From contig CAIMPI010000050.1 in NCBI GenBank assembly GCA_903843305.1, positions 1 through 64,000 on the forward strand: DNA of 64,000 nucleotides, given 5' to 3'. Position numbers and translations under genes: made by a program. Source of the stretch: an uncultured Chlorobiaceae bacterium (lineage in GTDB: Bacteria > Bacteroidota > Chlorobiia > Chlorobiales > Chlorobiaceae). Shown one piece after another: positions 2 to 28,406 of this stretch (position 1 is its first letter; the number at the start of each line of letters is the position of its first letter). The notes under the pieces are model-generated. The model saw only the letters and a list, made by a program, of their open reading frames with translations, did not search any database and was not told the origin of the DNA.

Positions 2-2601
2 GTTTCAATTCCATATTGGTGCAATTAGAATCCAGCATTCACAAGCCGACCAGATCGACATAACCATGTTTCAATTCCATATTGGTGCAATTAGAATTGC
101 ATCCCTGATTGAGACCATCATTATAAAATATTTGTTTCAATTCCATATTGGTGCAATTAGAATGAAGCTGCATCAACAGCGGCTTACAACGCCAGTCACG
201 TTTCAATTCCATATTGGTGCAATTAGAATATTTTATCCCCTGAGTTTGTGGGGGATTTCTCCCCCGTTTCAATTCCATATTGGTGCAATTAGAATTCTTA
301 AAAACGCATTGAACAACATAACTATTTCCGCGTTTCAATTCCATATTGGTGCAATTAGAATCAAATACAGTTCGCAGGGACGAAAGCAGAAGCAAAGGTT
401 TCAATTCCATATTGGTGCAATTAGAATCAGGCAGGACAGGCGCTATAATCCGCAAGACGAAGTTTCAATTCCATATTGGTGCAATTAGAATTCAGTAGCG
501 CCAGAGCAGCCGGTAAAGCCAACAACGTTTCAATTCCATATTGGTGCAATTAGAATTCGCAAGCAAAAAATCATCAATACCAAACATAATTAATGTTTCA
601 ATTCCATATTGGTGCAATTAGAATCAGGAAATGGCTATTATTAAGGAGAGGCGCAAAGAGTTTCAATTCCATATTGGTGCAATTAGAATCTGGTTTTTCC
701 ATTGGTGGTAAGTACGTCAAGAAAGTTTCAATTCCATATTGGTGCAATTAGAATGACGAAGAGAATTAATCGTAGGGGCAATAGCATTACTAGTTTCAAT
801 TCCATATTGGTGCAATTAGAATAAACGAAGATACGCTAAATGAGATTGCGCAAAAGAGGTTTCAATTCCATATTGGTGCAATTAGAATGCTTTGCAAGGA
901 AAAAGGTGTCAACCTTCGAGAATAGTTTCAATTCCATATTGGTGCAATTAGAATTTGATTCGTTGCGCTCCGGTACCTCCGCTCGTAATAGTTTCAATTC
1001 CATATTGGTGCAATTAGAATCAGGTAGCTAATCTATCTGTTAATGCTCTACCTTTCGTTTCAATTCCATATTGGTGCAATTAGAATAGCCGCTATGCCTT
1101 TGAGCACCTGCTGGTAAGCTAGTTTCAATTCCATATTGGTGCAATTAGAATCTCCAGCATTCCCAAGCCGACCAGATCGACATAAAGACGTTTCAATTCC
1201 ATATTGGTGCAATTAGAATAGTACGATCAAAACTGGAGCGAGGCAGAGAAACAGAGTTTCAATTCCATATTGGTGCAATTAGAATGACTTTTACAATAAC
1301 CCGGCAACCATCACCTGACAAGTTTCAATTCCATATTGGTGCAATTAGAATCAGGCTGCCAGTAAAGTTTCTGGCTGGCATTGACCGGTTTCAATTCCAT
1401 ATTGGTGCAATTAGAATCAAGGTCGAAGAACTCTGCCGCCACGTGTTGCAGTGTTTCAATTCCATATTGGTGCAATTAGAATACGTCTATAAAGAGGCGT
1501 TCACGGTTCCGGAAGGGCGTTTCAATTCCATATTGGTGCAATTAGAATGATGAGGTCGTTGATGGCCTCCATTCGGGCAACAGTGTTTCAATTCCATATT
1601 GGTGCAATTAGAATTACCCAACCACCAATTTGTCGTGTTCGTATTCCAGGTTTCAATTCCATATTGGTGCAATTAGAATGCCGGTGAACGCGTCTCGGAT
1701 ATCGCTATAAGCCTGTTTCAATTCCATATTGGTGCAATTAGAATTTAATCATGTCGCCCTCCTGTACTACAGGGTTCTGCGTTTCAATTCCATATTGGTG
1801 CAATTAGAATCTTCGCTGACGAGGTCATCGTCGGCTGTTAGCCATGTTTCAATTCCATATTGGTGCAATTAGAATCTTGATCATGTCGCCCTCTTGTACT
1901 ACGGGGTTCTGCGTTTCAATTCCATATTGGTGCAATTAGAATGTCAACGACTGAAAGATCAAGGCTTTCTCCTGTTATGTTTCAATTCCATATTGGTGCA
2001 ATTAGAATGGAACTTAACCGACAAATAAGGAGTAACCTGAACAAGTTTCAATTCCATATTGGTGCAATTAGAATTCAGCTATTCTGTACGCCCTCACGAT
2101 CTTGTCAAGGGTTTCAATTCCATATTGGTGCAATTAGAATTGGTGATGACCTTCACAAGCTCGAAGATCTACAGAGTTTCAATTCCATATTGGTGCAATT
2201 AGAATCTTGGACAGATGCTTCTATCGCGGTTCCTGCGGCTTTGTTTCAATTCCATATTGGTGCAATTAGAATTCGGCTTGTGTAAGGCGCTCGTCTCCAC
2301 CTGTCAGGTTTCAATTCCATATTGGTGCAATTAGAATTGGCATCTCCTGCAAAGTGCCATCAGGTTTCCCACTGTTTCAATTCCATATTGGTGCAATTAG
2401 AATTGCGATGAAAGCAGCACTCCCTGATTACATGAAGTTGTTTCAATTCCATATTGGTGCAATTAGAATGGAGTATGATGTTGTGAATGGCGGGCATACA
2501 TTCAGGTTTCAATTCCATATTGGTGCAATTAGAATAACGATATACGTCAAGCTGCCGGCTTATAACCAATTGTTTCAATTCCATATTGGTGCAATTAGAA
2601 T
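2..2601 (-). CRISPR. CRISPR array, 40 repeats, type I associated
   Basis: I count 40 copies of a 30-bp repeat (plus strand begins GTTTCAATTCC and ends CAATTAGAAT), starting at 2, 68, 134, 200 and so on to 2572, separated by 39 spacers of 34-38 nt. I saw no variation among the repeats. Base 1 is the end of a further spacer, so the array continues past the left edge. The crRNA strand is inferred to be minus: the reverse-complement repeat ends in ATTGAAAC, a common 8-nt handle; the cas operon is on that strand; and two near-duplicate spacer pairs (32-67/1152-1189 and 1745-1780/1876-1912) share their right ends and differ in length at the left, as expected if the PAM side is on the right. The newest spacers should then be those near 2535-2571. 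Confidence 0.98.
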
Positions 2602-2833
2602 CCGCCCTGATTTCGGCTGGAAAGTCGCGATTTTATTGAAAACTGAGTCCTAAAATCGCCTCGCTTTGTCGTCGGGTGGCAATAACGGATAAATGCCGGA
2701 GCCTTGACGACTTTCTTAATGTATTACATTTTGGTCTGTTAGAAAAATAGATGTACCGTTCTTCCCTGTTTTGCGGCTCCGAAGCTGACCGATAGTACTA
2801 CACTGACGACATCCGTCCCAGAAGGCATGAGTG
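2602..2833 (-). promoter_or_regulatory. Presumed CRISPR leader
   Basis: This gene-free 232 bp lies between the last repeat and the cas4 stop codon. With crRNA on the minus strand it would be the leader carrying the array promoter and the spacer-integration signals. It contains a perfect 9-bp inverted repeat (2627-2635 GCGATTTTA and 2651-2659 TAAAATCGC) and a degenerate repeat-like stretch at 2723-2744. No promoter could be assigned with certainty. The leader assignment is inference from orientation and position. Confidence 0.6.
2627..2659. repeat. Inverted repeat in the leader
   Basis: Perfect 9-bp arms GCGATTTTA (2627-2635) and TAAAATCGC (2651-2659) flank a 15-nt spacer, starting 26 bp from the last CRISPR repeat. 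It lacks the following T-run of a clear terminator. It may be a protein-binding site for leader recognition or transcription control; that role is inference. Confidence 0.6.
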
Positions 2834-3334
2834 CTAAGCCCAGCAAAATTCGTAATATGCGCATGTTTTGCAGAATTTCTTGTTAATCCGCTCTGGAGCT
2901 TTCTCTTGATTGACGAGAGCAGTCATGTCATCAAAGATTTCCCTGATTTTTTGCTCATCATCGGTGGTCAATACAACATCAAGCGTTTTTTTGAGTTTTG
3001 GATAATCAAGTCTGCCAGTGACATCCTCTACCCCAAAACTTTTCAGGTAATATAAGTAATATTTTAACTGCCAGAGATGAGCCTCTTCCATCTTGTCAGA
3101 TTTTTTCACCTCATGGACCACCTTGTGCTGCTTGTCGTAAAAATCGAGCACAGCGCCGTCGCTTAACTGAATCTCGTGGCGTTCATCGGGATAGGTGGTT
3201 TCACTGATGAACTTCCCCTCCTCTACCGTACTGAAATCACTTTCAAACTGCAACTGCCGTCCGAACAGCCATAGTTTCCGGTGGCAGATAAAGTAGTAGC
3301 TGATTTTTGTACCGTTTACCTTTGGATTAAGCAT
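2834..3334 (-). CDS. cas4: CRISPR-associated exonuclease Cas4
   Basis: Cas4 is a RecB-like nuclease with an iron-sulfur cluster that trims prespacers and helps select PAM and orientation during adaptation. The 166-aa product has the expected cysteines: one near the N-terminus (C17 in YFICHRKLW) and a C-terminal trio C155, C158, C164. Between them are the RecB-type motif VHEVKKSDK and the following QLKYYLYYL helix. It is the last gene of the operon, 6 bp after cas2 and next to the presumed leader. In most type I-B loci cas4 precedes cas1, so its place after cas2 is unusual. Confidence 0.93.
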   Translation of the reverse strand: MLNPKVNGTKISYYFICHRKLWLFGRQLQFESDFSTVEEGKFISETTYPDERHEIQLSDGAVLDFYDKQHKVVHEVKKSDKMEEAHLWQLKYYLYYLKSFGVEDVTGRLDYPKLKKTLDVVLTTDDEQKIREIFDDMTALVNQEKAPERINKKFCKTCAYYEFCWA

Positions 3335-3340
3335 GGCGTA

Positions 3341-3601
3341 TCAGATAAAATTAGAGGCGGGCCGCTTTTCCATGCCGAGAATCTCCTTCTTCATATACTT
3401 TCCATTCAACTCAAAAAAAATAACTGAATCCTTTTCATCATGGCAGAGGTGTGAGGCCTCATACTTCAGCTTTTGATATGATGCGGGAGTCATCTCGCCC
3501 TCAAAAACGGAATTCTGGATGTGGTGCATGTACTTGCGGAATATTTTCAGCATTTTTCCAACACGCTTTTCCTCCACATCGTACACGGCAATATAGTACA
3601 T
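3341..3601 (-). CDS. cas2: CRISPR-associated endoribonuclease Cas2
   Basis: Cas2 forms the adaptation integrase complex with Cas1. The 86-aa product is of normal length and starts MYYIAVYDVEEKRVGKM, the usual first beta strand with its conserved aspartate (D8), followed by IFRKYMHHIQNSVFEGE, typical of Cas2. It lies 27 bp after cas1 and 6 bp before cas4 in the same transcription unit. Confidence 0.95.
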   Translation of the reverse strand: MYYIAVYDVEEKRVGKMLKIFRKYMHHIQNSVFEGEMTPASYQKLKYEASHLCHDEKDSVIFFELNGKYMKKEILGMEKRPASNFI

Positions 3602-3628: not shown

Positions 3629-4783
3629 CTACCACCAGCTTCGGAACGCATGGTATGAATCTTCGCCGATGAGATGTTTGATGAGTTTATAGCATTCGAG
3701 ACGAATGAGGCGACGATATGAAACGTCCCTGCCAAGACCCCGATGCTTGATAGTTGTTCTCATTCGCTCTTCAAACTCCTTGACTACAATTTTCCTGCCA
3801 GCATCGTTCAGGTGGCAGAAGTTTAGAGCAGTAGTAAAATGTTTAGCCTGAATCTCACGAGTGTTGACCAGTTTGAAAATCATCCGGTCAATAAACATTG
3901 GCTTGAAAATTTCAGCCATATCAAGCGCCAGCGAAAACCTGCGTTCCGACGGTTCATGCAAAAAAGAGATTGTCGGGTTGAGCTGTGTCCGGTAAATTTC
4001 GGTGAGGCAGGCTGAATACATCAAGCTGTTACCGAAAGACACCAGCGCATTGACGGCATTATCCGGCGGACGTTTCACCCGTTCCGAAAAAGAAAAAGCC
4101 GGGTCAGCCGAGCGGAGCAGATGCTGCCACGATTGGTAATAGAGCTTGCGAATATTTCCTTCAATACCCATCAGACAAGGGATATCCCAAGCCGTGGCAA
4201 TAGTGGCCGAAAGCGACTCGATCTGCGCAATGGTATGGAACAGTATGTCAACACTCTCCTGCCCCAGCGCAGCCTGCCGCGAATCAGCGGTGTAGTATTT
4301 CAAATTTCGCGCAATATTTGCTGCAGCAGATTCAATAAACTCACGAGCAAGCTCCATCCGTTTTTTCAGTGAGCTGTAATGCTTCACCTGATGCACAACC
4401 AGATACCCCGACAACAAGTATTCGCGCGGGTAGTAGGAGCCTGAATAAAACCCGTAATAGTTGAACAGGTGCATAGGAATGCGGTTCTTGGTCAGAAAGT
4501 TCAGGAACTTCGTGTTGAAGTTCACCTCCCCGAACACAAAAAACGAATCAATGTTATTGATCGGGATCACTCGCCTTCCACCGGTATTCAGCTTGTCATC
4601 CTTTACAGGATTGAGCGAAAAGCTCTCAAGCTCATCCGACTCAAAATAGAGTAAAGGATCCGTTTCGATAGTCACCTCATCCTGCGTGACATGCGGCACA
4701 AAACAAATGGTGTTCTCCCGCCGCATGAGCACACCATTTGAGAAGATGTAAAACGGCTGTTTTGTAGGAATTGATTGGGACAT
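3629..4783 (-). CDS. cas1: CRISPR-associated integrase Cas1
   Basis: Cas1 integrates new spacers at the leader end of the array. The 384-aa product has the family features: a beta-rich N-terminal part with the IDSFFVFGEVNFNTKFLNFL segment, then the helical catalytic domain with the glutamate in GIEGNIRKLYYQSW (about residue 208), the histidine in FLHEPSERR (about 277) and the aspartates in LALDMAEIFKPMFIDR (about 287-300). It is some 40-50 residues longer than many Cas1 proteins because of an N-terminal extension. The start lies 3 bp after the cas3 stop, so the two are probably translationally coupled. Confidence 0.96.
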   Translation of the reverse strand: MSQSIPTKQPFYIFSNGVLMRRENTICFVPHVTQDEVTIETDPLLYFESDELESFSLNPVKDDKLNTGGRRVIPINNIDSFFVFGEVNFNTKFLNFLTKNRIPMHLFNYYGFYSGSYYPREYLLSGYLVVHQVKHYSSLKKRMELAREFIESAAANIARNLKYYTADSRQAALGQESVDILFHTIAQIESLSATIATAWDIPCLMGIEGNIRKLYYQSWQHLLRSADPAFSFSERVKRPPDNAVNALVSFGNSLMYSACLTEIYRTQLNPTISFLHEPSERRFSLALDMAEIFKPMFIDRMIFKLVNTREIQAKHFTTALNFCHLNDAGRKIVVKEFEERMRTTIKHRGLGRDVSYRRLIRLECYKLIKHLIGEDSYHAFRSWW

Positions 4784-4786
4784 TCA

Positions 4787-7006
4787 TTAACAATAAAGAT
4801 TATCAAAATTGTAATCAATGTTCAAGCCTTCTTCAAAGGAGTAAGCAGATTCGGATGCGACCAAAATATTTCTTTTCTCATCTCTAATGCCTATTTCGCT
4901 TGAACTTATGCTACCGTTTGAAATACCTCGCTGAGCCAAATAAATAGGAATTGCTATACCCCACTCATTTTTAAATGCTTGAAAATCCATATAGTTTTTA
5001 AAATAACCGTCAGGGTGTTTTGTAAATACCGTTACTTGAGCAGGAATATTGCGGCTTTTCCATTGCATGGTATCTTCTTCGTCTTCTTTCATTTCATCAG
5101 CCGGAAGAATTAACCAATTGGCAATAAATAACTCTTCCAAACATCTTGCATTGTTTTTTGCATCACTTGGGGATTCTTGCTGCTTGTCATACACTTGGTT
5201 CACGAGATTTACAAAATCGGCAGCCGAATAGTCTTTTAGCTCAAGTAAATCTTTTGTTTTCACGAATGCCGGATTGGCTTCCCAGCCGGTTTGCCGCAAA
5301 TATGAGCCGTATGGTGCTGGATATTCTTTTTCATTTCTCATGGGCAAAATTACATGAAGCGAACCAACTTGTTTTCCAAACCGCGATAACCGCCCCACCC
5401 GTTGAACCAGTCTATCTATCGGACACAATTCTGAAATCATAAAATCCGCACTGATATTCACGCTGATTTCTCCAATTTGAGTCAGAATTGCAATCCCATT
5501 CGCTTTATTTTCTTTCCAAGCAGATGCCCCGAGCATGTCCAGCAATAGCTCTTCTTTTTTCTTCTTATCGGCTTCAATAAACCGACTGTGATACAACACC
5601 GGCTCAACATCTTGCTTCTTAAATCGTTGATATAACTGCATTGCATTTGCAACCGTGTTTGCATAAATAATCGTCGGTTGTGTCTTGCTTGCTTCCAATA
5701 GTTCGTCAATTTCATCCAACTCCGAGTAAGATTGAATTGATTTCACAGCACAACGAGTGCGCGATAAATCCGAAACATCTGCCTGTATTTTCAAATTATT
5801 ATAACCTGCTTTTTCATATAGCTTTAGCGACGAATCGGGAAGCGAGGCACTCATGAGCATGACGGGAACTTCCAAAATTCTTGTTGCGACGAGTAATTTT
5901 TCAATATTGGCCTGAGTGAAAGCATCATAAAAATCGGCTTCGTCAATCACCAAACAGCTATGTGCAAGATTGAATACAATGCCGTGATGGTCTTCCCGCG
6001 AAAGCGTTAGGGAGGCTAAAAGGTGGTCTATTGTACAAACCGTTACGGGCGATTCAAGCAAACGTGCAAACTCGTGAATCATCCGCTCCTTATGTTCATT
6101 TTCTTTTGACAGCTTAGCGTTCTCACTATGGTGACTAAACCATGCGCTTGAGTGATATAGCCCCGTTTCCGAAACGCGCTCATTAACATTCAAAGCCAAT
6201 GCGTTTGACGTAAAACGGGTCGGCATTGCAATTACCAAACGGTCGGCGCGTTTCGCCTCAATTTGCTTTTTCGCCCAAAGCAGCGCGGCGTCTGTTTTGC
6301 CCGCACCAGTCGGGGCGCGAAGCAAAAGCAGCGGCTCATTTGAAAAATCTTCTGCCAATTGCTGAACCGGTCGTTTTTCCCATGCTTCGGGAAATTCATA
6401 TAGAAATGGCTGAAAATCCGGCACAAAACGCCCGGTCTCGTCAATATTTTCCTGAATGCTCGCCCGATGGTCAGCAAGCTGCACATAAGAGCGAACGCCT
6501 GAAAACTTATAATGCCATTGAAGCGCGTTTTCAAAAGCGTCTTTCGCAATAGGGTCAAACGCATTATTTGAAAGACGTTTGAATGAATCCCAAAAGTTTT
6601 GTGCGCCTTTCAGTTCTGCATCTAACCAACGCTTTTCATGCCCACTTGAAAGTTTCTTATGATGTGCAGCAATCGCAATTTTGACAGGTTCAGAAAGTGA
6701 TTTCTTTTGGAGCATAATCAACGAAGCAATTTCATGACGGATACCAACTTTCATTAAATTGCTTCCGTATTTCCCCCCCACCAAAAAGTTTTGATTGTCT
6801 TTTTTGCATGCCGCTTGCCATTTCGGATGAGCTTTTCCAACATCGTGAAACAGTGCGGCAGTTTTTACTTCTTTTTGAAAATCACTTCCTGCAAGCCGTT
6901 CATACTTTTCCGAAACGAAAGGATGAGCAGAAACGCAAACTTGAGCTTCCTGCTCAACGTCTTTTGAATGCGTTTCCAGTGTTACGCCGGTTGGTTTGGC
7001 TAACAT
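4787..7006 (-). CDS. cas3: CRISPR-associated nuclease-helicase Cas3 (HD domain fused)
   Basis: Cas3 is recruited to target DNA by Cascade and unwinds and degrades it. The 739-aa product carries both activities. An N-terminal HD nuclease is shown by H13, the H54-D55 pair in LFHDVGKAH, and later histidines in GIRHEIASL and IAAHHKK. The SF2 helicase has Walker A APTGAGKT (about 235-242), a DEAD box in CLVIDEADFYDAF, motif III MSASLP and motif VI QRVGRLSRFG. An undivided HD-helicase favours type I-B over I-A, where the two parts are usually separate. It starts 6 bp after cas7 and ends 3 bp before cas1. Confidence 0.96.
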   Translation of the reverse strand: MLAKPTGVTLETHSKDVEQEAQVCVSAHPFVSEKYERLAGSDFQKEVKTAALFHDVGKAHPKWQAACKKDNQNFLVGGKYGSNLMKVGIRHEIASLIMLQKKSLSEPVKIAIAAHHKKLSSGHEKRWLDAELKGAQNFWDSFKRLSNNAFDPIAKDAFENALQWHYKFSGVRSYVQLADHRASIQENIDETGRFVPDFQPFLYEFPEAWEKRPVQQLAEDFSNEPLLLLRAPTGAGKTDAALLWAKKQIEAKRADRLVIAMPTRFTSNALALNVNERVSETGLYHSSAWFSHHSENAKLSKENEHKERMIHEFARLLESPVTVCTIDHLLASLTLSREDHHGIVFNLAHSCLVIDEADFYDAFTQANIEKLLVATRILEVPVMLMSASLPDSSLKLYEKAGYNNLKIQADVSDLSRTRCAVKSIQSYSELDEIDELLEASKTQPTIIYANTVANAMQLYQRFKKQDVEPVLYHSRFIEADKKKKEELLLDMLGASAWKENKANGIAILTQIGEISVNISADFMISELCPIDRLVQRVGRLSRFGKQVGSLHVILPMRNEKEYPAPYGSYLRQTGWEANPAFVKTKDLLELKDYSAADFVNLVNQVYDKQQESPSDAKNNARCLEELFIANWLILPADEMKEDEEDTMQWKSRNIPAQVTVFTKHPDGYFKNYMDFQAFKNEWGIAIPIYLAQRGISNGSISSSEIGIRDEKRNILVASESAYSFEEGLNIDYNFDNLYC

Positions 7007-7012
7007 TAAGAA

Positions 7013-7960
7013 TTATTCAGTTTGGGATTTCGGAGAAAATGCGGCTTCAAAGGTCTTGATTTCGCTGTCACCACCACACGGATCATAAAGGGAATTTTTT
7101 TCGAGAAACTCGAAGGCATTCTTATATGCTGTTGCAACGCTTACGTCACCTTCCACATCGTTTCCTAAAAAATAAGTCGCCTTGCGCTCGTCTAATTCGG
7201 CAAGAATATTGCTTTTTTCTTTTTCATTTGCTTCAAAATAGCGTGATGCCTTCCGGCTAAGCTTGGAATCGAAAACAATTAAAATTACTTGTGGCTCACC
7301 GGTGGTTGCGTTTCGCGCTTGCTGAGCAAAATCGGTTAATGAGCAAGTGGACTCCAAGTAAAGTTTTGCCCTCCGCTTGCGTTCAGCCTCATTTACATGT
7401 TTTACATATTTCGTCTCAAGATGTACACCCTTATTCCCTGATTTTTCACCGTATTCAAACTTTTTTGAAATGCTGAGAGACGAAAGATCAAGGTGAAAAT
7501 TCATAAGCATCATATCGCACTGGCTGAATTCACGAGTTGCCAATGCTTGGTCTCTGTCGCCCTCGCTGTCCATTTTCAAGCGAATTAATAAATCGCGACC
7601 AATATCACTTTTTTCGAGAGCGACCGCTGGTGTCACACTCATCGGAGAAATTCTCCTGCCAGAATAGTTGCCTGCAGAAGGGTGCATAAAACCGCCCAAG
7701 TCCGCACGTAAATCAGTTTCAATAGTATTGCTAATCCCGTCACCGTTTGAAACATGGGTTTTTCCTCTGCCGCTATCCTCGATGTTCAATCGCTCCATCG
7801 CACTGAAAAAAGCATGTCGCTGCATTTGTCCTGAAATGTAAACACGTTCATCTGGGCGGCGCTTTATGGATGAAGCATTGCCCAAAAGCTTTTCTCCGCC
7901 GTTGGCAATGTGATTTGTCATTGGCGCAAGAAGTGTAACCAAAATGCCTTTGATAACCAT
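7013..7960 (-). CDS. cas7: Cascade backbone protein Cas7 (DevR/Cst2-like)
   Basis: Cas7 subunits line the crRNA in the Cascade effector complex. The 315-aa product has the DevR/Csa2/Cst2-type N-terminus: GILVTLLAPMTNHIANGGEK, then SSIKRRPDERVYISGQMQRHAFFSAM. Assignment rests on this N-terminus, the length and the position between the large subunit and cas3. It lies 35 bp after the cas8 candidate and 6 bp before cas3. DevR-family Cas7 proteins are usual in subtype I-B and some I-A systems. Confidence 0.88.
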   Translation of the reverse strand: MVIKGILVTLLAPMTNHIANGGEKLLGNASSIKRRPDERVYISGQMQRHAFFSAMERLNIEDSGRGKTHVSNGDGISNTIETDLRADLGGFMHPSAGNYSGRRISPMSVTPAVALEKSDIGRDLLIRLKMDSEGDRDQALATREFSQCDMMLMNFHLDLSSLSISKKFEYGEKSGNKGVHLETKYVKHVNEAERKRRAKLYLESTCSLTDFAQQARNATTGEPQVILIVFDSKLSRKASRYFEANEKEKSNILAELDERKATYFLGNDVEGDVSVATAYKNAFEFLEKNSLYDPCGGDSEIKTFEAAFSPKSQTE

Positions 7961-7995: not shown

Positions 7996-9564
7996 TTAAT
8001 CTGTATCGGATTTGGAATCATCAAGCCCTAATTCCGATAATTGTGGCATTTCGTCCGGTTCGAGGTCTTCGCTTGTGCTACGCAAGCGAGAGTAAGCTAT
8101 AATCAAGTTTTTTGATTCCTCAAGCGTTAGTTTTCCACTGGCAACTGCATCAAAAAATAGAGTAGCTCCATTTGGTGCGTCACTTTGTGAAAGTCTTCCT
8201 GCACGAGTTACGACTTGGGCTAAGAGCGCATCATGAGATTTTGCGGCAAATACCGTGCTTTCCATTTCTGCCAAAAATTTAGCCTTTAACTTGCGAATCA
8301 TTTCCTTATCATTTGTTTTATCCCGATTCTCAGCCTCCTTACGCGCCGCCCAATAAGCGGTCTTGTTTAGCCACTGACCTAAAGCCCGTGCGGATTGCAC
8401 AATAGTTTCATCTTTTTGCATAGCATTGATAAAGTAGGTGTTAAATAATTTTTCAAGTTCTTGGGGGTATTCGGCACGAATTGAAAGGAAATCTTGAAAG
8501 CTTTTTTGTTCAAAAAGTTGAAAAAAGCGTGATACAAAAAGAAAAAAAAGTTGATATTTTGCGCTTGACAAATCTCGTTTTTCTTCTGAAAGAATTTTGG
8601 AATATTGAATAGCATCAATGATGTCGCTAAGGAAATCATTTTTTGCTAACTCAACAATCCAGTGACCGAAGGAAACTGATTTGGCATTGCCATATTCAAC
8701 AATGTAAATCGGACGCGATTTCAAACTGTCGAGAACGTGCTTGCCTTCGTCCCCACAATTGGCTTCTTTTGCCCAACGGCCAATAGCACCTAACAAACCG
8801 ACGCAGCCTAATGCGGACTGTCTCGGTGCGTAAGGAAAGTTCCCGCTGCAAATTTTCGGACGTTGAAAACTATAAACTATTTCGGCCTTATTTTTATTTG
8901 TATTTACTTTTCCAAATAAAAGTTCTTTTGTTCCTGACTTCAACATTTTTCGGAATAGGTGTATAAATCTCTTTAAATCTTTTAGCTCTAAATCAGGAAT
9001 AATACAGGCAGTGTCGGTTTCTCCGCTCATAAGCTTCGGCAACAAAGCTGGCTTGTCTGGGGTGAAGGTGGTGATAGCACAGCTTGCCACTTCAATCAAA
9101 GACGATTTGGAATTTGATTGGGATTGCTTGCCGTTGTTAATCTTACCGGAAAGCGGCATGAGCGACATTGTGGCTTCTTTACTTGACAAAAGTTTTCCAC
9201 CCTTTAACTCTGCTTGTGTGTCTGAAACCGCTTTCCAGGCATTTCCCGCACCTTTATTTGATGTGATAACGGTCGGTGCAAGAAAGTACTTCACCTCAGC
9301 CGAAACATCTTTCCCGACTTGAACGATAGATTTGCCTTGCGAGCCTATTCTTGCCGGATTTTTACAAAAAAAATCCTTATTCAAGTATCGAAATTCAACC
9401 GATTTATTTTCTATATTAAAAGGCAAAGGTTCAACTCTGAAATGATTTTGTCCGTTTTCCAATTCCGAAATAAGCATTTCAGGCGTTACTTCTTCAGGAG
9501 AATCGAGCTTATTATTCAGCATTGTAAGGGCAAGACCGTAACGCCCATAAAAATGATTAACCAT
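7996..9564 (-). CDS. Probable Cascade large subunit (Cas8-type), divergent
   Basis: By position and size this 522-aa protein is the large subunit that recognises the PAM and recruits Cas3. I do not recognise a specific Cas8 subfamily: no CxxC zinc finger of the Cst1 type is present and cysteines are sparse. The N-terminal two thirds is mixed. The last 150 residues, from about AQSARALGQWLNKT, look mostly helical and could match the small-subunit (Cas11) fold that several I-B, I-C and I-D systems make from an internal cas8 start. No convincing internal ribosome site was found. Its start overlaps the cas5 stop by 8 bp. Confidence 0.72.
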   Translation of the reverse strand: MVNHFYGRYGLALTMLNNKLDSPEEVTPEMLISELENGQNHFRVEPLPFNIENKSVEFRYLNKDFFCKNPARIGSQGKSIVQVGKDVSAEVKYFLAPTVITSNKGAGNAWKAVSDTQAELKGGKLLSSKEATMSLMPLSGKINNGKQSQSNSKSSLIEVASCAITTFTPDKPALLPKLMSGETDTACIIPDLELKDLKRFIHLFRKMLKSGTKELLFGKVNTNKNKAEIVYSFQRPKICSGNFPYAPRQSALGCVGLLGAIGRWAKEANCGDEGKHVLDSLKSRPIYIVEYGNAKSVSFGHWIVELAKNDFLSDIIDAIQYSKILSEEKRDLSSAKYQLFFLFVSRFFQLFEQKSFQDFLSIRAEYPQELEKLFNTYFINAMQKDETIVQSARALGQWLNKTAYWAARKEAENRDKTNDKEMIRKLKAKFLAEMESTVFAAKSHDALLAQVVTRAGRLSQSDAPNGATLFFDAVASGKLTLEESKNLIIAYSRLRSTSEDLEPDEMPQLSELGLDDSKSDTD

Positions 9565-10273
9565 TTGTTAAGCCCTCCCGAAAACAGACATCAACCCAAC
9601 CTTCACTTGTTCCCAAATAACCGATATTCATCTCCAAACAAGCATTATGAAGTAATTTCAATAGTTGACTGTTTATGTTAAGTTTGAATTGATAGGCGCC
9701 AGTAGCAATAATAAATTCCCGCTTTGGAACTGACCGATAGTAAAGCGGAAATAGCGTACGGTTATCCATGAAAAATTTTCCAAAATCGTTTTCAGTAAGT
9801 TCTTTTGATTTGATTTTTGCTTTAATAATGTTTCTTTCATTTTCAAGTCGCCAATCGTAATTAATTGCACCATCTGCATGGCGTTGATCGCCTCCTATGA
9901 GATGCTGTGTCCACAAGTCTTCATAATATTGCAATGTCGGAACGAATGTTGGCGATACAGGTTTAAAGTAATATCCAACTAGCGATTGAAAGCCAACTTC
10001 CGACTCTTCTTTTTCACGTTCTTGCTTAAACTTTTTCTTATGCACTTTTTTCATTTCTCTGAAAATTTTCATTCGATCCTCTTTAGAAAAATGCCAACCG
10101 AGTAAATTTTCAAAGAGACCAGAAAGCATAAATTTTGTAGGAATACTTTCTGTTTTGTAATAAGAACCGGGTAGATTATTGACCATTGAAAGTGGTGCAA
10201 GAGGCTGAATTGTCAGAATGACAATTGCATCAAACTTGGGTTCTTCAAAAAGCAATGAAATATCTATTTCCAT
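9557..10273 (-). CDS. cas5: Probable Cas5 Cascade subunit
   Basis: Cas5 holds the 5-prime handle of the crRNA. The 238-aa product has a RAMP-like N-terminus: strand VILTIQPLAPLSM, then a glycine-rich turn and TKFMLSGLFENLLGWHF, which matches the pattern of Cas5 proteins. The middle is lysine-rich (about residues 70-95). It lies between cas6 and the large-subunit gene and overlaps the latter by 8 bp. In most I-B loci cas5 follows cas7. A non-Cas5 RAMP is the alternative, but no other gene in the operon fits Cas5. Confidence 0.75.
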   Translation of the reverse strand: MEIDISLLFEEPKFDAIVILTIQPLAPLSMVNNLPGSYYKTESIPTKFMLSGLFENLLGWHFSKEDRMKIFREMKKVHKKKFKQEREKEESEVGFQSLVGYYFKPVSPTFVPTLQYYEDLWTQHLIGGDQRHADGAINYDWRLENERNIIKAKIKSKELTENDFGKFFMDNRTLFPLYYRSVPKREFIIATGAYQFKLNINSQLLKLLHNACLEMNIGYLGTSEGWVDVCFREGLTNG

Positions 10274-10297: not shown

Positions 10298-11122
10298 TCA
10301 TTTCCCTCTACCATTTCCTTTTTCATCAACCCTCACCATCCCAAACCCCATCGAATTATTCACCCCAAATCCACATTCATAGCCGACCTTTATCAGCTCT
10401 GGATGGCCTGTCACGATAAACGGGCATTCGATGGCCTTGACTCTGCTCTCTCTTCCGTTGGCATCCTTGATGGTAATCAGCTTTTCCACACTCCTCCCCT
10501 TCTCCTGCATCCGCTTGAGATATCCTTCCCCAAACATTATCGAAAATGGGACGCTGCCTTCTGATGGTTCGCTGCCATAGATACCTCGATACTTGGCTTG
10601 CAGATTGTGCAGCAGCATGTCGGGGAGACGGTTGTCGTCGTAGCGGAGATACTCTTTTGTATTCATTCCCGACGAGGGATCGCGATAGAGTGATGCAGCA
10701 AGCGGGGAGAGCATCGAAAATGCCATCTGTTCCGACCACTCTGGATCGGGTAGTGACTCGATAAGCTGCTTCTCGAACAAGGCGTTTTCTATTCGCAACG
10801 CGCCATCACTAAAGAGACCGGTAATAAGATGCTGCAAAAATTCCTCTTTTGGGGAGGAGAGATAGAGCGTTACCGCACGGGAGCGCGACACAATTCTTCC
10901 CTGCTCTACGGTGCGCGCCGGAATCTGCAAATTGGAAAAGGTGAAATATTTGAACTTCTGCCGGGCGCCTTCAGAGGCATATCCATGCTCGTGCAACTGC
11001 GTAGCAAAAGAGCTTGATGAGTGTGCGAGCGTGGCATATATCGCCGAAGCGAGATGGTAGCCTGTATTGAGCGGAAGATATTCTACAGATTTCTGCTGCC
11101 GAAGTGTCAGTTTGAGTCTCAT
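10298..11122 (-). CDS. cas6: crRNA-processing endoribonuclease Cas6
   Basis: Cas6 cuts the array transcript within each repeat, leaving the 8-nt handle. The 274-aa product starts MRLKLTLRQQKSVEYLPLN, then YHLASAIYATL and FKYFTFSNLQIP, the usual first ferredoxin-like domain. It ends with the glycine-rich loop GFGVNNSMGFGMVRV typical of Cas6. I chose the ATG at 11122 rather than an upstream in-frame start at 11173 because MRLKL is the normal Cas6 start and GAGG lies at a suitable distance upstream. It is the first gene of the cas operon, so the operon promoter should lie in 11123-11389. Confidence 0.92.
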   Translation of the reverse strand: MRLKLTLRQQKSVEYLPLNTGYHLASAIYATLAHSSSSFATQLHEHGYASEGARQKFKYFTFSNLQIPARTVEQGRIVSRSRAVTLYLSSPKEEFLQHLITGLFSDGALRIENALFEKQLIESLPDPEWSEQMAFSMLSPLAASLYRDPSSGMNTKEYLRYDDNRLPDMLLHNLQAKYRGIYGSEPSEGSVPFSIMFGEGYLKRMQEKGRSVEKLITIKDANGRESRVKAIECPFIVTGHPELIKVGYECGFGVNNSMGFGMVRVDEKGNGRGK

Positions 11123-11389
11123 AAGGGGTGATCCTCTGAAAACTGTGACACAAATTGAGCATTGTTCCGGCAAAGATGAGCAACAGGTCGTATCGATGGT
11201 GAAGCCATAGAAATGATTTTAAGCGGAGCAATGAAGAGTCCATCAAACATATCAAACCTTATACTCATCTTACACAATATTTTCATCAATAAAAAAAGGT
11301 TATCGACGTAATCATCGATTTTATGGATTGATATAAGCCCAACGGCGGGAACAGCAAACATCTTGATAAAGGAGGAAAGCTAACGGCTC
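11123..11389 (-). promoter_or_regulatory. Region upstream of the cas operon
   Basis: These 267 bp precede cas6 and must contain the cas promoter if the operon is transcribed from here. An 80-codon open frame (11119-11361) ends in a TGA overlapping the cas6 ATG. It has no recognisable domain or ribosome site, so I do not call it a gene. No promoter could be assigned with confidence. Confidence 0.35.
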
Positions 11390-27968: not shown

Positions 27969-28006
27969 GAGAGTCTTTATAGTATGTTAAAAAACTCTTC
28001 TTTTTG

Positions 28007-28406
28007 TGGAGATGGCGGGAGTCGAACCCGCGTCCAGAACATTGCTCAATAAAGCTACCACACTCATCTCAGGTGTTCAGTGTTTCATGAACCAGTGCTA
28101 CACCTGCAAAGTTTGGTTCACTATCCCTCTTTAAATCACCCGCCTGCCTTTTCGGGCAAAAACAGTTGGGGCTTACTTGCGCGAACCGAAGCTCAAGCGC
28201 TGGTTATGCCATCCGGTGGCTTCAGAGTAAGCGCCTCCCCCATCGGACGATGGCTGGTTAATTAACTTGTGCTAATCAGGCAGCCATTGCATACGAATAA
28301 TCGTCTGCATATAATGTTGCATAGACTTCTTTTACGAGTCCATCCATGCTGAAACTCGGAGTGCAACTCCATCTTGCATCTACCCTGTCGAAAGCCTGTC
28401 ATCCCC
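28007..28406 (-). ncRNA. ssrA: tmRNA
   Basis: tmRNA rescues stalled ribosomes and tags the nascent protein for degradation. The 5-prime end GGGGATG (at 28406) pairs with CATCTCC near the 3-prime end to give a 7-bp acceptor stem. The T arm GCGGGTTCGACTCCCGC is at 28012-28030. The tag reading frame encodes ADDYSYAMAA followed by a stop, the tag I recall for Chlorobium. The CCA end is not encoded: the discriminator A is followed by CAA. Length is 400 nt. This is the best taxonomic marker in the window. Confidence 0.95.

What the first reader, a model, noticed from the sequence alone, without database searches (positions are those of the whole stretch)
1745..1912. Two near-identical spacers that differ only at silent codon positions
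Spacers 1745-1780 and 1876-1912 match over 36 nt except for three differences. Read on the minus strand as QNPVVQEGDMIK, all three fall in third codon positions and leave the peptide unchanged (cct/ccc, cag/caa, att/atc). The simplest reading is that the array captured the same site twice from two related viruses or plasmids whose coding sequence differs silently. The shared right end also supports the PAM side and the minus-strand crRNA. Seen: the two sequences and the silent pattern. Inferred: the origin. The complementary frame is silent too, so the coding strand is not certain.
Basis: partly seen in the sequence, partly recalled or inferred. Interest (0 to 1): 0.6.

Follow-up and report, generated by a model that had tools for sequence, protein, structure and literature searches.

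The report
CRISPR recaptured one phage site twice
A green sulfur bacterium's CRISPR array holds two near-copies of one short stretch of a phage's DNA-packaging gene, differing only at silent positions because the site was captured twice from diverged relatives of one phage lineage, and related arrays from other samples show the same habit repeatedly.

Summary
Spacers 1745-1780 and 1876-1912 differ at three bases, all silent on the minus strand, and share the PAM-side end exactly. Alone the silence is weak (p about 0.15), but follow-up settles it. QNPVVQEGDMIK lies in the large terminase (TerL) of a phage family in IMG/VR; all 5 and 6 differences from that phage are silent, and a CCA PAM abuts the shared end. 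Seven other spacers of this array and its sister array hit the same phage, all in packaging/head genes. Across 14 spacer-phage hits 82 of 105 mismatches are at third codon positions, and CC precedes 14 of 15 best protospacers. A second re-captured site (portal gene) sits at 32-67 and 1152-1189. Two long related Chlorobiaceae arrays hold 11 more same-register pairs; the pooled excess of silent changes has p < 1/2000. Exact PAM-site reuse exceeds PAM density (p about 3e-4), suggesting acquisition hotspots. The leader is at the right end, so 1876-1912 is younger. Changes spare the PAM and first nine positions, arguing against escape mutation. The system is type I-B, PGING variant. Neither exact source phage was found. 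Ordinary CRISPR memory, unusually clearly recorded; site reuse is the open part.

The parts
2..2601 (-). CRISPR array, 40 identical repeats, 39 spacers (numbered 0-38 from the left); crRNA sense is the minus strand; runs off the contig edge at the left
1745..1780 (-). Spacer 26, terminase large-subunit site, older capture
1876..1912 (-). Spacer 28, same terminase site, younger capture, three silent differences from spacer 26
1943..1978 (-). Spacer 29, second site in the same terminase gene (ITGESLDLSVVD), 365 nt upstream of the first
1811..1845 (-). Spacer 27, probable head-morphogenesis site (WLTADDDLVSE); PAM not CC in the relatives found
32..67 (-). Spacer 0, portal-gene site, older member of the second re-captured pair
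1152..1189 (-). Spacer 17, same portal-gene site, younger member of the second pair
1087..1121 (-). Spacer 16, portal gene of the same phage
2206..2242 (-). Spacer 33, probable site in a related phage (KAAGTAIEASVQ, 11 of 12 residues)
2273..2307 (-). Spacer 34, DUF5681 gene just before the large terminase (10 of 11 residues; 11 nt mismatches)
2404..2439 (-). Spacer 36, head maturation protease gene of the same phage
2470..2505 (-). Spacer 37, structural-region gene of a related contig (EYDVVNGGHTF, 10 of 11 residues), CCT PAM
2602..2833 (-). Leader: conserved sequence between cas4 and the first repeat
2834..3334 (-). cas4
3341..3601 (-). cas2
3629..4783 (-). cas1 (type I-B, TIGR03641)
4787..7006 (-). 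cas3 (HD and helicase)
7013..7960 (-). cas7 / csp1
7996..9564 (-). cas8 / csp2 (full-length match, below the curated cut-off)
9557..10273 (-). cas5p
10298..11173 (-). cas6

Best explanation
The two spacers are independent captures of one and the same protospacer from two silently diverged members of one temperate tailed-phage lineage of green sulfur bacteria. The site lies in the terminase large-subunit gene, on its coding strand, next to a CCN PAM. The type I-B (PGING-variant) Cas1-Cas2-Cas4 machinery took the fragment with the same PAM-fixed end each time, while the far end varied by one nucleotide. Each was inserted at the leader (right) end, so 1745-1780 is the older. Shown: coding frame, gene, PAM, register, and that the array repeatedly samples this lineage. 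Inferred: order of capture (from leader position), drift between encounters as the source of the differences, and a capture hotspot at the site, possibly helped by the older spacer, which still matches the PAM side of the newer target.
For: Peptide found only in phage TerL contigs; all 5 and 6 differences from the phage are silent, CCA at the shared end. Seven more spacers of this array or its sister array map to the same phage contig; reversed-spacer controls give none at 9 or fewer mismatches. CC at -3/-2 in 14 of 15, or 17 of 20, best protospacers. 13 same-register pairs in three arrays; silent excess not reached in 2000 shuffles. Conserved leader at the cas side. Far-end lengths differ (36/37 and 36/38 nt), as expected of separate captures.
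Against: No contig matches either spacer exactly; the nearest has 5 and 6 mismatches. Three silent changes alone are not significant. The best hit of spacer 16 lacks a CC PAM.
Confidence: 0.92

Rival explanations
1. One spacer was copied inside the array by recombination and then mutated in place.
For: Duplicated spacers are known in CRISPR arrays (general knowledge).
Against: All 40 repeats are identical while the spacer differs at 3 of 36 positions. Changes are silent in a phage gene, which in-array mutation has no reason to respect; pairs in related arrays with 7-8 changes are nearly all silent. Lengths of the two copies differ.
Confidence: 0.02
2. The phage escaped spacer 26 by mutation and the host then captured the escaped version as spacer 28.
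For: Same site, later capture.
Against: The PAM side and first nine positions are unchanged; changes sit at 10, 19 and 34. Over all 13 pairs changes are not enriched in positions 1-8 (17 of 62). A 10-nt seed as described for Haloferax type I-B (from memory) would just include position 10, so this is not excluded.
Confidence: 0.08
3. Same-site reuse is chance: a heavily sampled phage lineage with many captures will repeat some sites, with no hotspot or guidance by the older spacer. (This competes with the hotspot part only, not with double capture.)
For: The lineage is heavily sampled, and detection favours conserved genes, so coincidences are found preferentially.
Against: Of overlapping captures, 14 of 25 share the exact site against about 22% expected from PAM density (p about 2e-4 to 3e-4; collapsed for clusters about 1e-4). 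Pairs are not all independent.
Confidence: 0.3

Closest known systems
Hot-spring Synechococcus CRISPR versus virome (Heidelberg et al. 2009, PMC2612747)
   Same: A spacer-targeted phage gene varies in the virus population mainly by silent or conservative changes
   Different: There one spacer is compared with virome reads; here two silent variants of one site are both stored in one array, and the pattern recurs in related arrays
Trout Bog Lake green sulfur bacterial viruses (Berg et al. 2021, PMC8163819)
   Same: Temperate phages of uncultured green sulfur bacteria linked to hosts by CRISPR spacers, with repeated sampling over years
   Different: The main text does not mention PAM, duplicate spacers or same-site re-capture; whether the contigs used here are from that lake was not verified
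Clostridioides difficile type I-B adaptation (PMC8406132)
   Same: CCN PAM for new spacers; spacers map non-uniformly to the source
   Different: Experimental capture from plasmids; a different type I-B branch from the PGING variant
Interference-driven and primed acquisition in Pectobacterium type I-F (PMC5059440, abstract)
   Same: An existing matching spacer can promote further captures from the same invader
   Different: Different subtype; in the present case only a plausible contributor, not tested

Membership tests
Type I-B CRISPR-Cas, PGING variant | Cas7/Csp1 and Cas5p over the curated NCBIfam cut-offs | tested here: met
   Csp1 451.5 bits against 340.65; Cas5p 161.1 against 100
Type I-B CRISPR-Cas, PGING variant | Cas8/Csp2 over the curated cut-off | tested here: inconclusive
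   Full-length match, E 3e-119, but 398.8 bits against a cut-off of 461.75; PADLOC Cas8b model also matches
Type I-B CRISPR-Cas, PGING variant | Cas3, Cas6, Cas1b, Cas2 and Cas4 in the operon | tested here: met
Type I-B CRISPR-Cas, PGING variant | Interference and acquisition activity | not testable with these tools
   Needs expression; intact genes and a long array suggest activity
Repeated capture of one protospacer from related phages | Both spacers fall at the same site of one gene, in one register, next to a PAM | tested here: met
Repeated capture of one protospacer from related phages | Differences follow the codon frame of that gene | tested here: met
   3 of 3 between spacers, 5 of 5 and 6 of 6 against the phage
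Repeated capture of one protospacer from related phages | Two viruses found that match the two spacers exactly | tested here: not met
   Nearest viral contigs have 5 and 6 mismatches; metagenomes could not be scanned
Terminase large subunit (target gene) | Matches to ATPase and nuclease domain families | tested here: met
   Terminase_6N and Terminase_6C over cut-off; phrog_38 E 9e-81

The most novel reading that the evidence does not exclude
In this type I-B variant, capture returns to exactly the same PAM sites on successive, silently diverged phages, so single arrays hold ordered allele series of individual phage loci; the reuse reflects a site preference of Cas1-Cas2-Cas4 or guidance by the older spacer, not chance.
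Probability: 0.35. Interest if true: 0.6.

Novelty: new member of a known kind. Interest (0 to 1): 0.42.

Why it matters
It names a target gene (phage terminase) and a phage family for an uncultured green sulfur bacterium, and gives the PAM of its CRISPR system from sequence alone. Arrays that store several silent variants of one phage site, in order of capture, could be used to read phage divergence over time and to test whether natural spacer capture has fixed hotspots.

Tried and rejected
Own genome and 60 relatives searched for the peptide pattern with 3 mismatches: only the array itself. Named phage records, distant mode: only chance 17-20 nt hits. Genome contigs, exact peptide pattern: none. 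Patterns for the second pair's peptide, first in a wrong frame, then in the right one: none, because the related phage reads QNAQADQIDIN. TerL in the own genome and in the genomes behind L111, L112, L113 and L115: none. Array distance against divergence of the pairs: rho 0.40, p 0.17, not significant. Enrichment of changes in positions 1-8: none. Runs of neighbouring spacers against this phage: p 0.03 with spacer 27 counted, 0.26 without, so not relied on. Internal duplication followed by mutation: rejected because repeats are perfect and changes are silent in a phage gene.

Full report
Observation. The window begins inside a CRISPR array at the edge of contig C50 of a 2.59-Mb genome. It has 40 identical 30-nt repeats (2-2601) and 39 spacers, numbered here 0-38 from the left. 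Spacer 26 (1745-1780, 36 nt) and spacer 28 (1876-1912, 37 nt) differ by three transitions when aligned at their right ends. All three fall in third codon positions of a minus-strand frame reading QNPVVQEGDMI(K). In a shuffle that keeps substitution types, full silence of the three changes has p about 0.15 and same-phase placement about 0.095, so this pair alone is only suggestive.

Target. A degenerate pattern for the peptide hit six IMG/VR contigs, all in one open frame of about 490-500 residues where complete. It matches Pfam Terminase_6N and Terminase_6C and PHROG terminase large subunit. All six carry one nucleotide variant, which differs from spacer 26 at 5 and from spacer 28 at 6 positions, all silent. 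This fixes the coding strand as the window's minus strand. The triplet abutting the shared end is CCA.

Same phage, many spacers. Scanning all spacers against these viral loci with up to 9 mismatches gave hits for spacers 0, 16, 17, 26, 28, 29, 36 and one spacer of a small sister array on contig C24, while reversed spacers gave none (larger sets). In the 29-kb contig G063 (IMGVR_UViG_3300020723_000019) the hits lie in TerL (26, 28, 29), in the DUF5681 gene just before it (34, mainly at protein level), portal (16, 0, 17), head maturation protease (36) and the following ORF (C24 spacer). The contig also carries an integrase, so the phage looks temperate. For 14 spacer hits from the window, C24, L113 and L115 arrays, 82 of 105 mismatches in the actual gene frames are at third codon positions and 8-12 of 11-12 residues agree. 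Spacers 33, 37 and probably 27 also fit at protein level.

PAM and order. CC at -3/-2 precedes 14 of 15 best protospacers, and 17 of 20 in a larger phage set; the -1 base varies. CCN is an established type I-B PAM in C. difficile (PMC8406132), and NGG on the other strand is reported for P. gingivalis (PMC6609313; CCN for Porphyromonas I-C in PMC8482600). The cas genes are Csp1, Csp2, Cas5p, Cas6, Cas3, Cas1b, Cas2 and Cas4, the PGING variant of type I-B; Csp2 is below its curated cut-off. The sequence between cas4 and the first repeat is conserved in related loci, so the leader lies at the right and spacer 28 is younger than spacer 26, given leader-end insertion (established knowledge).

Generality. 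Cas1 relatives led to Chlorobiaceae MAGs with long arrays: L113 (132 repeats) and L115 (136, 195 when extended with L118). The window, L113 and L115 arrays together hold 13 near-duplicate pairs in the same register. Of the five pairs with 7-8 changes, three have no amino-acid change in the best frame, one has one and one has two. Pooled, 9 non-silent codons were seen against 29.7 expected, not reached in 2000 shuffles. One further site is shared between L113 and L115 with one mismatch. Silent same-site re-capture is thus a habit of these arrays.

Hotspot test. If CCN sites were used evenly, about 22% of overlapping captures would share the exact site; 14 of 25 do (p about 2e-4 to 3e-4; same strand only, 14 of 20, p about 1e-3; collapsed for clusters about 1e-4). 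Caveats: the pairs are not fully independent, PAM density was taken from two phages, and conserved genes are over-represented. Changes do not concentrate in positions 1-8 (17 of 62), and in this pair sit at 10, 19 and 34, so escape mutation is not favoured. A 10-nt seed as described for Haloferax type I-B (from memory) would just include position 10. Since spacer 26 still matches the PAM side of the spacer-28 target, help from the older spacer (primed or interference-driven capture, as in PMC5059440) is plausible but untested.

Precedent. Silent variation of CRISPR-targeted phage genes was reported for hot-spring Synechococcus (PMC2612747). I found no paper in the held library on near-identical same-site spacers in one array, but that library is partial and the searches were few.

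Verdict. It is ordinary CRISPR memory seen at unusually good resolution; the excess reuse of exact sites is the part worth further work.

Noticed in passing
window 32-67 and 1152-1189: A second same-register near-duplicate pair; maps to the portal gene of the same phage lineage, with the internal change silent in the portal frame and differences at the PAM-side end.
   Followed up: yes
L113 spacers 84/116 and 27/53, L115 spacers 53/54: Near-duplicate pairs with 7-8 differences that are all silent in one frame; their target phages were not identified.
   Followed up: partly
L113 spacer 60 and L115 spacer 162: Two MAGs from different samples carry the same primase-gene site with one mismatch.
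   Followed up: partly
L009 5893-6252 (contig C24 of the same genome): A second array of six repeats of the same family, with a degenerate repeat at the trailer end; one of its spacers hits the same phage.
   Followed up: partly
L099/L100 (contig G063): Window spacers hit only the packaging/head region of this phage contig, while L113 and L115 spacers hit mostly its replication genes; perhaps phage mosaicism. Not tested.
   Followed up: no
L097, L109-L110 (G035 contig C24, same genus): A prophage-like region with a terminase gene 58% identical and two in-frame stops; window spacer 13 (889-924) matches it with 9 mismatches and a CCA PAM.
   Followed up: no
window 28006-28406, minus strand: tmRNA gene with tag ADDYSYAMAA.
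   Followed up: no
L112, right end: In this relative the sequence after cas4 turns into a short tandem repeat (CCGGAGNAAAGTGTACCA-like) instead of leader and array at the contig end.
   Followed up: no
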